Positions 13,380 through 59,679 of a stretch of DNA of 64,000 bases are shown here, in pieces. Every line of letters begins with the position of its first letter. Within the stretch, counting starts at the first letter, position 1. Below the pieces are notes generated by a model, which was given only the letters and a program-made list of their open reading frames with translations, searched no databases and was not told where the DNA came from. Position numbers and translations under genes: made by a program. The stretch is from Natrinema salsiterrestre (lineage in GTDB: Archaea > Halobacteriota > Halobacteria > Halobacteriales > Natrialbaceae). The DNA is taken from contig NZ_JAMQOT010000001.1 of the NCBI RefSeq assembly GCF_029502005.1, positions 434,001-498,000 of the forward strand, given 5' to 3'.

Positions 13380-13486
13380 GCTGGTTCGCGGGCATCAGCG
13401 GGCACCTGTACGACACTACGTCACAGGTCGGGATGTGATCCGCGGGGCATGTGCCCCGGTCGGGATTGAACCAGCAAACGCCCGCG
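13380..13486 (+). ncRNA. Structured 5' leader of rpl15e with two competing long-range pairings
   Basis: GCTGGTTC (13380-13387) is exactly complementary to GAACCAGC (13468-13475). CGCGGGC (13387-13393) is exactly complementary to GCCCGCG (13480-13486). The two pairings are interleaved, so they form either a pseudoknot or alternative states. Inside lie a hairpin ACCTGTACG/CGT-C-ACAGGT (13404-13428) and a GGGGC/GCCCC hairpin (13444-13457). The element ends 10 bases before the L15e ATG. Most haloarchaeal mRNAs have no leader, so this looks like a cis-regulatory RNA, possibly bound by a ribosomal protein. Confidence 0.5.
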
Positions 13487-58249: not shown

Positions 58250-58459
58250 CGCTGCCGTTCTCCGGTTTTGTTCGTCGGTATCGACCTTGATCTCGAGGGA
58301 TGATCAGTACAGATGCAGCACGTGTAATTCGATTAATCAGGCCATCAAAAACCAATTTTCTACCGGTTCCCCCTCAAGTGAATGTTGTACCGTGTTATAT
58401 GAACCCATATATTAATAATAAATTCTGAAGGTTTCAAGTGTCTCCCCTTCCTGTATAGA

Positions 58460-58984
58460 ATGAGACATATGATGGGCGGTGATCAGCAAACGTTCGATCT
58501 CGTTATTGACCTCGTAGAAGCGTGGATTCCCGAGAAGGCGTATGGACATGAACGGGACTTTCAGAGCGAACTTCAGGATTACCTCGATTATGAACTCAAC
58601 GAGAGGCAAGGAGGCGGTGGAATGGGTCAACAACGAGAACTTCCCGTATCGACCGAGCGAGGGAAGGCGAAAGCCGATGTCGTTGTCGACGATCTCGTCG
58701 GCATCGAACTGAAGCGCGACCTTACAAACAGTCAGAGAAACAAACTTGATGGACAGATCAACGAGTATCTGAAGGAATATCCATACGTCATCGTCTGTAC
58801 CTGTGGAATCCAGGATCTGGATGGCTGGCGTCGGCTCAAAAACGAATACGAGGGGTCCTCTGGATTCGGGATGAATCAACAGGAGGTCGTGTTCATCCAC
58901 AAGCGAACGGAGAACTTCGGCAAAGATCCGTCTGAATTCCGTGAGAACAACGATGGGATCTTTGGCGGTGGTAGCATCCTCTAA
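58460..58984 (+). CDS. PD-(D/E)XK nuclease-like protein
   Basis: This 174-residue protein has the core nuclease pattern: E37, D73 (in KADVVVDDLVG), the E83-x-K85 pair in GIELKRDL, and a Q-x3-Y helix (Q99, Y103) as in RecB/Cas4-like nucleases. It is expected to cut DNA with a metal ion. The coding sequence and its upstream region (58290-58460) are clearly lower in GC and codon bias than the neighbours, which suggests transfer. A TATA-like ATATTAATAATAAATT lies about 40 bases upstream. There is no methylase or other partner next to it, so restriction is unproven. Confidence 0.75.
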   Translation: MRHMMGGDQQTFDLVIDLVEAWIPEKAYGHERDFQSELQDYLDYELNERQGGGGMGQQRELPVSTERGKAKADVVVDDLVGIELKRDLTNSQRNKLDGQINEYLKEYPYVIVCTCGIQDLDGWRRLKNEYEGSSGFGMNQQEVVFIHKRTENFGKDPSEFRENNDGIFGGGSIL

Positions 58985-59143
58985 TGGCGGATATGACTCG
59001 TGTATGAGCGTCTCCGAGTTGAATACCGACGTTCTATTTCTCAACCGGAATTCGGCGGATCATCTGGCGCTGCTCGCTCAGCCCACCATCTATTCATCAG
59101 TGAAAACAATAGTTATAAGTAACAACGAATAGAGTATTAAATC
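58985..59143. other. AT-rich spacer before the hairpin block
   Basis: This holds a TATA-like AGTTATAAGT (59111-59120) about 26 bases before the first hairpin on the plus strand. A 42-codon frame (59004-59132) is present but has no pattern, so it is not called as a gene. Confidence 0.4.
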
Positions 59144-59238
59144 GGAGGCTACGTCTCCAACGGGGGCGTACGCAAACGCCCCGGGTGGTGGCACACCCGA
59201 GACTAGCTTCCAAACCCAACACACGGGTTTCCGGAAGC
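59144..59238 (+). ncRNA. Candidate small structured RNA: four adjacent hairpins
   Basis: Four stems follow one another with almost no gap: GGAGG/TCTCC (59144-59158), GGGGCGT/ACGCCCC (59163-59182), CGGGTG/CACCCG (59182-59199), and GCTTCC+AAACCC/GGGTTT+GGAAGC (59206-59238, with a CC bulge). A TATA-like element sits about 26 bases before the first stem on the plus strand. Another, TTTATAT (59260-59271), sits about 26 bases from the other end on the minus strand, so strand is not certain. A G-U pair in the first stem mildly favours plus. No known RNA family was recognised. Confidence 0.5.
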
Positions 59239-59341
59239 ATGATTCCGTACATTCTACCGGGATATAAACGTCCCGCACGACAGCCGAATCGCCAGCCGCA
59301 ACTAGCTTCGGTTCCGACGCCGGTCTCGAGGCGCAATCACC

Positions 59342-59533
59342 ATGTCTAACGACGGCGACCCGCTCGCGGAGCGCCCGTCGTCGCGTCCCGACTGTCCGAA
59401 CTGCGGCGAGCCCGTCAGCATCGTGACCTCGAGCAGGCTGTACAGGGGCACCGTCTCCCCCTGTGGCTGCTCGGTGAATCCGGGTCTCCTCACGACCGAC
59501 CCCGCCGACCGCGGGCTGGGGACCGGCGAGTGA
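59342..59533 (+). CDS. Small zinc-finger protein 1
   Basis: This 63-residue protein has CPNC (residues 18-21) and a later CGC pair, giving four cysteines that could hold one zinc. The rest is Ser/Asp/Pro-rich. Haloarchaea encode many such tiny zinc-finger proteins, most without known function. Its stop overlaps the ATG of a second tiny zinc-finger gene (TGATG), so the two are probably made together. Confidence 0.65.
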   Translation: MSNDGDPLAERPSSRPDCPNCGEPVSIVTSSRLYRGTVSPCGCSVNPGLLTTDPADRGLGTGE

Positions 59534-59679
59534 TGACCGGGCCTCGAGTCACGGAGTCGAAGCGCTGTCCCGACTGTGGGGCGGTACTTCCACTCTGCGA
59601 CCCGATTGTGGGCTGGTGGCTCTGTGACGACTGCGAACTCGGGGTCGACGAGAACGGCGAACGCGTCACCGACCGGTAA
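59533..59679 (+). CDS. Small zinc-finger protein 2
   Basis: This 48-residue protein begins at an ATG overlapping the previous stop. It has two CxxC pairs (CPDC at 12-15, CDDC at 31-34) plus an extra Cys, around a WW pair. A single-zinc fold is likely. It is rich in acidic residues like other haloarchaeal proteins, which supports it being real despite its size. Function unknown. Confidence 0.65.
   Translation: MTGPRVTESKRCPDCGAVLPLCDPIVGWWLCDDCELGVDENGERVTDR

What the first reader, a model, noticed from the sequence alone, without database searches (positions are those of the whole stretch)
59144..59238. Four back-to-back hairpins with promoter-like boxes on both sides
About 95 bases fold almost entirely into four stems, with TATA-like elements about 26 bases outside each end. 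No protein frame with sense is present. It lies in a transferred-looking segment next to a nuclease-like gene. It could be a new small RNA, a mobile-element end, or a phage or plasmid relic. A 9-base sequence, ACTAGCTTC, recurs at 59202 and 59301.
Basis: partly seen in the sequence, partly recalled or inferred. Interest (0 to 1): 0.6.

Follow-up and report, generated by a model that had tools for sequence, protein, structure and literature searches.

The report
Two-fold RNA switch in haloarchaea
The hairpin block is the start of a messenger RNA that can fold in two mutually exclusive ways, one of which puts a helix right against the start codon; about 28 copies sit in this genome and relatives occur across salt-loving archaea, mostly in front of tiny zinc-binding protein genes, so it looks like an undescribed family of on/off RNA switches.

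Summary
The structure is real and strong on the + strand (-49.1 kcal/mol, z -5.6), but it is not a stand-alone sRNA or IS end. It is the ~95-nt 5' leader of a small operon: TATA box 59113-59120, leader 59144-59238, basic 36-aa ORF 59239-59349, overlapping CPxCG zinc-finger ORF 59342-59533. The genome has 28 strong copies. The folds are near-isoenergetic (-48.4 vs -48.9). Both helices co-vary: 0 of 2000 permutations reach the own-partner energy inside Natrialbaceae and in other families. A model built without c finds the element in 198 of 392 order-level genomes, 63 of 95 genera. In most hits read outside Natrialbaceae, a b-complementary c lies directly before an ATG. Downstream genes mostly encode small zinc/cysteine proteins. 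No Rfam match and no earlier description found. Best reading: a haloarchaeal translational RNA switch. The trigger, and which fold is ON, are unknown.

The parts
59113..59120 (+). TATA box TTATAAGT of the operon promoter
   Evidence: TATAA lies 30 nt upstream of the first stem in 74 and 29 nt in 7 of 84 scored copies
   Evidence: searches (z -5.58; two folds), 28 genomic copies
59144..59151 (+). strand a (GGAGGCTA), pairs with b in fold B; 59153-59157 (GTCTC) extends the helix with 59199-59203
59163..59182 (+). hairpin H2, conserved AAA on the 3' side of its loop
59183..59198 (+). hairpin H3, GUG/CAC pairs at the loop invariant in 40/40 aligned sequences
59204..59211 (+). strand b (TAGCTTCC), shared by the two mutually exclusive helices
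59233..59238 (+). strand c (GGAAGC), pairs with b in fold A and abuts the start codon
59239..59349 (+). 36-aa basic ORF MIPYILPGYKRPARQPNR..., frame kept in the copies, stop overlaps the next start
   Evidence: (overlap -8, -4 or -11 in 71 of 76 copies with a detected zinc-finger ORF); protein-level constraint weak (N/S about 1)
   Evidence: G-C to A-U compensatory change, 85 vs 34, both sides nonsynonymous
59342..59533 (+). 63-aa CPxCG zinc-finger protein
   Evidence: CxxC...CxC in 76 of 76 homologues (CxxC...CxC was also the search criterion); no Pfam or NCBIfam family at cut-off
59533..59679 (+). 48-aa second CPxCG ORF, TGATG overlap with the previous stop; also seen in close paralogues
   Evidence: sequence; L028 paralogue; homologous unit of about 570 bp

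Best explanation
The block is a cis-acting, two-state 5' leader RNA controlling translation of a small-protein operon. Transcription starts near 59142-59144 (inferred from TATA spacing). In fold B, strand a pairs with b, closing a three-way junction with H2 and H3; c, just before the AUG, is then unpaired. In fold A, b leaves a and pairs with c, placing a helix directly against the AUG. The likely effect (inferred) is that fold A hinders and fold B allows ribosome entry. In Natrialbaceae the first ORF serves as a relay: ribosomes end on a stop overlapping the zinc-finger start and re-initiate (inferred). In many other haloarchaea the switch stands directly before the gene. Shown by comparison: two mutually exclusive conserved helices, position against the start codon, wide distribution. 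Not shown: transcription, the trigger (metabolite, metal ion, protein, temperature or salt), direction of control.
For: Both folds near-isoenergetic: window -48.4/-48.9; 124 Natrialbaceae-type relatives, median difference 2.25 kcal/mol, helix b:c present in 117 A folds and a:b in 120 B folds. Own-partner pairing better than swapped partners, 0/2000 permutations for a:b and b:c in 125 copies and in 59 hits of other families with 22 distinct b strands (a:b -10.4 vs -6.9; b:c -9.1 vs -5.7). All three strands change together: GGAAGCC/GGCTTCC/GAAGCC; Halostagnicola GAAACC/GGTTTC/GAAACC; GGAAGAC/GGTCTTCC/GAAGACC in Haladaptatus-type genomes; AGACAG/GGCTGTTT/AAACAGC. b non-GG goes with c ending GC, Fisher p 5e-10. 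c lies next to the ATG (gap 0) in 94 of 125 and 45 of 59 although model R3 held no c. Core covariation: 13 pairs with two-sided changes vs 6.5 shuffled, 0/500. 28 strong copies here, 63 of 95 genera. Overlapping ORFs in 71 of 76. In Hfx. volcanii, synthetic leaders that mask the AUG region repress translation (PMC8241225), and overlapping genes are translationally coupled in archaea (PMC6728339).
Against: No transcript or expression data were available. Outside Natrialbaceae fold B is favoured by a median 4.8 kcal/mol, so fold A may need help or form during transcription. Folding was computed at 37 C in standard salt, not in molar KCl. c is imperfect or not adjacent to the ATG in some copies (16 of 125 lack a perfect 4-nt match). 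In the tests outside the family the ATG was chosen by best pairing, a mild bias. Permutations do not correct for relatedness, though the changes recur in many lineages.
Confidence: 0.78

Rival explanations
1. Protein-responsive leader: the small zinc-finger (or basic) proteins encoded downstream bind the three-way junction and set the fold, an autoregulatory or cross-regulatory circuit like ribosomal-protein leaders. This is a version of the switch with a protein trigger.
For: Most downstream products are small CPxCG or SWIM zinc proteins; [quoted passage not shown] salinarum (Brz/Brb, PMC3184054); many copies share one core, fitting a common trans factor.
Against: Downstream proteins are diverse (CPxCG, SWIM, PadR, OB-fold) while the RNA core is constant, which argues against each product being the ligand.
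Confidence: 0.3
2. The leader is released as a small RNA acting in trans on other copies or mRNAs; the mRNA context is secondary.
For: Compact, strongly folded, many copies.
Against: c is fixed against the AUG across families, and H3 loop sequences vary without an obvious pattern; both fit a cis role.
Confidence: 0.08
3. RNA thermometer or ionic-strength sensor: the two folds exchange directly with temperature or salt, no ligand.
For: Near-equal energies of the two folds; haloarchaea face large salt swings (general knowledge).
Against: Nearly invariant unpaired AAA in H2 and invariant GUG/CAC in H3 suggest a specific tertiary or binding site.
Confidence: 0.15
4. Mobile-element terminus, MITE or relic whose inverted repeats happen to fold.
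For: Dispersed, multicopy, some copies on large plasmids.
Against: Shared unit is promoter + leader + ORFs; orthologous position with 95% identical flanks in a relative; compensatory changes that preserve RNA pairing; no phage or viral-contig match.
Confidence: 0.02

Closest known systems
Translational riboswitches / leader switches with mutually exclusive helices (general class; the fluoride riboswitch of T. kodakarensis is cited in PMC8241225 as the only experimentally determined natural one in archaea)
   Same: 5' leader position, conserved core, alternative helix that competes next to the initiation site
   Different: No ligand known; the competing strand is not a Shine-Dalgarno sequence but the nucleotides directly against AUG; about 28 copies in one genome; found only in haloarchaea here
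Hbt. salinarum bp4-OE2447F-boa4 and brz-brb operons (PMC3184054, PMC2253796)
   Same: Small basic protein ORF overlapping or following a small CPxCG zinc-finger ORF in one transcript
   Different: bp4 has almost no leader by the published start site (my calculation from the reported distances); linked to Bat-type regulators; no sequence relationship shown
Rfam chrB-a (RF03078)
   Same: Weak chance-level alignment over 59157-59241
   Different: 21.2 bits versus a gathering score of 43.9, E 0.67
C(P)XCG micro-proteins of Haloferax volcanii (PMC11241148, PMC6562870; abstracts read only)
   Same: Small two-motif zinc-finger proteins
   Different: No common leader RNA mentioned in the abstracts; the family here matches no Pfam or NCBIfam model at cut-off

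Membership tests
Riboswitch | Located in the 5' leader of an mRNA | tested here: met
   Conserved TATA 30 nt upstream, ORF start directly downstream in most copies; the transcript itself was not seen
Riboswitch | Conserved structured core supported by covariation | tested here: met
   all measures 0/500 shuffles; conserved AAA and GUG/CAC
Riboswitch | Mutually exclusive helices forming an expression platform | tested here: met
   a:b and b:c both co-vary; by comparison and computation only
Riboswitch | Direct binding of a small molecule or ion that changes expression | not testable with these tools
   No ligand data; so it is not filed as a riboswitch
Known Rfam RNA family | Match at or above the gathering score | tested here: not met
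IS/MITE terminus | Terminal inverted repeats bounding the unit | tested here: not met
   no substantial inverted repeat bounds the unit; one 12-nt 92% pair 513 nt apart (59079/59604), inside the unit at one end and not checked in other copies
IS/MITE terminus | Target-site duplication, empty sites in relatives | tested here: inconclusive
   One relative has the element at the same site; duplications not searched in all copies
Stand-alone sRNA gene | Own transcription unit without a linked ORF | tested here: not met
   An ORF follows directly in nearly all parsed copies
Brz/Brb-type operon | Neighbouring small basic and CPxCG ORFs in one unit | tested here: met
Brz/Brb-type operon | Adjacent Bat-like regulator gene | tested here: inconclusive
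   Flanking ORFs of the 26 copies are diverse by eye; they were not annotated by profile search

The most novel reading that the evidence does not exclude
A new class of natural ligand-binding riboswitch (perhaps for a metal ion such as zinc or a redox/sulfur metabolite) used in tens of copies per genome in haloarchaea to govern a network of small zinc proteins, regulating initiation by placing a helix directly against the AUG rather than by hiding a Shine-Dalgarno site.
Probability: 0.35. Interest if true: 0.93.

Novelty: new variant of a known kind. Interest (0 to 1): 0.83.

Why it matters
A 2021 paper (PMC8241225) names only one experimentally determined natural riboswitch in all archaea, none in haloarchaea. 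An RNA switch present in about two thirds of sampled haloarchaeal genera, with 28 strong copies in one genome, would be a major undescribed layer of gene control. It would show how leadered, SD-poor haloarchaeal mRNAs can be regulated at initiation, would link the puzzling abundance of small zinc-finger proteins to a common control, and makes mechanism and ligand directly testable in genetically tractable haloarchaea.

Tried and rejected
Rfam at gathering and relaxed thresholds: nothing. Phage, viral-contig and plasmid searches: the DNA itself occurs only on chromosomes and large plasmids of Natrialbaceae. Reading the second TATA as a minus-strand promoter: rejected, it is hairpin H5 in the ORF. 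Reading the ORF peptide as the conserved product: weak, N/S about 1 outside H5, so it is treated as a relay whose frame matters more than its sequence. First attempt at constrained folding used a wrong constraint flag and gave wrong energies (energy part; its Fisher test stands); repeated correctly. Model R2 lost its structure because MAFFT misaligned the 5' arm and was not used. Pfam, NCBIfam and PADLOC gave no family at cut-off for the peptide, zinc finger or neighbouring nuclease-like ORF (PADLOC was run on the zinc finger and the nuclease-like ORF only). Three variant sequences (L161, L166, L170) appear to use the same a/b/c logic with different arms; noted by eye, not counted.

Full report
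Observation. The 95-base block folds strongly on the + strand (-49.1 kcal/mol, z -5.58, no shuffle as low) and less so on the - strand. The upstream TATA box is real by conservation; the downstream one is the loop region of a hairpin inside a reading frame.

It is a family. The window DNA finds 26 dispersed copies in its own genome, and a covariance model built on them finds 28 strong ones. Reading them shows one layout: TATA box, ~95-nt structured leader, ATG, a basic ORF of usually 33-44 codons (MIPYILPGYKRPARQPNR...), and a CPxCG zinc-finger ORF whose start overlaps the first stop by 8, 4 or 11 nt in 71 of 76 scored cases. On two Natrinema plasmids looked at, no gene is annotated under the element (that gene table is known to be incomplete). 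Flanking genes differ between copies. At the window locus a related genome has the element between the same genes (flanks 95%, element about 84%), without the nuclease-like ORF, so the element is old at this place and evolves faster than its neighbours.

Two exclusive helices. Strand b (GGCTTCC-like) is complementary to 5' strand a (GGAAGCC-like) and to 3' strand c (GAAGCC-like) that touches the ATG. In 125 copies, own partners pair better than swapped ones for both a:b and b:c, 0 of 2000 permutations. Where b lacks the second G, c ends GC instead of GCC (Fisher p 5e-10; the four apparent exceptions of one kind are the Halostagnicola sequences, in which all three strands have changed together to GAAACC/GGTTTC/GAAACC). 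Constrained folding over 124 copies gives a median difference of 2.25 kcal/mol between the folds.

Independent test. A model of the core alone (a, H2, H3, b; no c, no ATG) was built from 40 diverse sequences; its helices show covariation beyond all shuffles and slid controls. It finds matches in 198 of 392 genomes of the order, 63 of 95 genera, in nine families; in a phylum-wide draw every match lay inside the order. The 60 hits read outside Natrialbaceae were then inspected for c: in most, a sequence complementary to that hit's own b ends directly at an ATG 10-29 nt downstream, with 22 distinct b strands and own pairing well above swapped pairing (0/2000). Because c was never in the model, this is strong evidence for a conserved switch.

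Downstream genes. Besides CPxCG proteins: SWIM zinc-finger proteins in many copies on Haladaptatus plasmids, short cysteine-rich proteins, a PadR regulator, an OB-fold protein (weak match, below cut-off), and one locus with a phage-type integrase further downstream. Zinc-binding small proteins are the common theme but not universal.

The first ORF. Its frame and stop position are kept, but its amino-acid sequence is only weakly constrained (N/S about 1 outside the hairpin). Hairpin H5 within it switches G-C to A-U on both sides in 34 versus 85 sequences, changing two amino acids each time. RNA structure is conserved at the expense of protein sequence there. I infer a relay role by termination-reinitiation, which is established for overlapping genes in archaea (PMC6728339).

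Mechanism. Most likely a cis-acting translational switch; fold A is expected to be OFF because a helix abuts the AUG. Synthetic leaders that mask the AUG region repress translation in Hfx. volcanii (PMC8241225). The direction and trigger are not shown. Nearly invariant unpaired AAA in H2 and invariant GUG/CAC in H3 hint at a specific tertiary or ligand site.

Known or new. No Rfam family matches, and literature searches found no description; the library lacks most subscription papers. The nearest biological analogue is the small basic plus zinc-finger ORF pair of Hbt. salinarum (PMC3184054), which lacks such a leader by its published start site. It works like a riboswitch-type leader; it is not filed as a riboswitch because ligand binding is untested.

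Noticed in passing
window 58252-59032: A segment of about 782 bp carrying a nuclease-like ORF (58460-58984, weak sce7726-like match below cut-off) is missing at the same locus of a related genome, directly upstream of the element.
   Followed up: partly
window 59533-59679: A second very small CPxCG ORF overlaps the stop of the first zinc-finger ORF (TGATG) and recurs in close paralogues, so the cassette may hold three coupled ORFs.
   Followed up: partly
window 13405-13477: eL15-Euryarchaeota ribosomal protein leader, the only Rfam match of the window at gathering score.
   Followed up: no
L161, L166, L170 (other haloarchaeal families), matches at 1501-1670: Variant leaders with a differently placed a strand (ACGGAAGC / GCCTCCGT / ACGGAAGC-ATG) seem to follow the same three-strand logic; in L170 the hairpin region and the zinc finger are in one ORF.
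   Followed up: no
L217-L246 (Haladaptatus-type genomes), matches at 1501: Up to 19 copies per genome of the leader, many before SWIM zinc-finger proteins that are common on Haladaptatus plasmids; reason for the amplification unknown.
   Followed up: no
L064, L077, L089, L098, L112, L139 (Halopiger djelfimassiliensis): Copies with a longer first ORF (MIAYPLPRHKRLARHSV...) and no detected zinc-finger ORF behind it.
   Followed up: no
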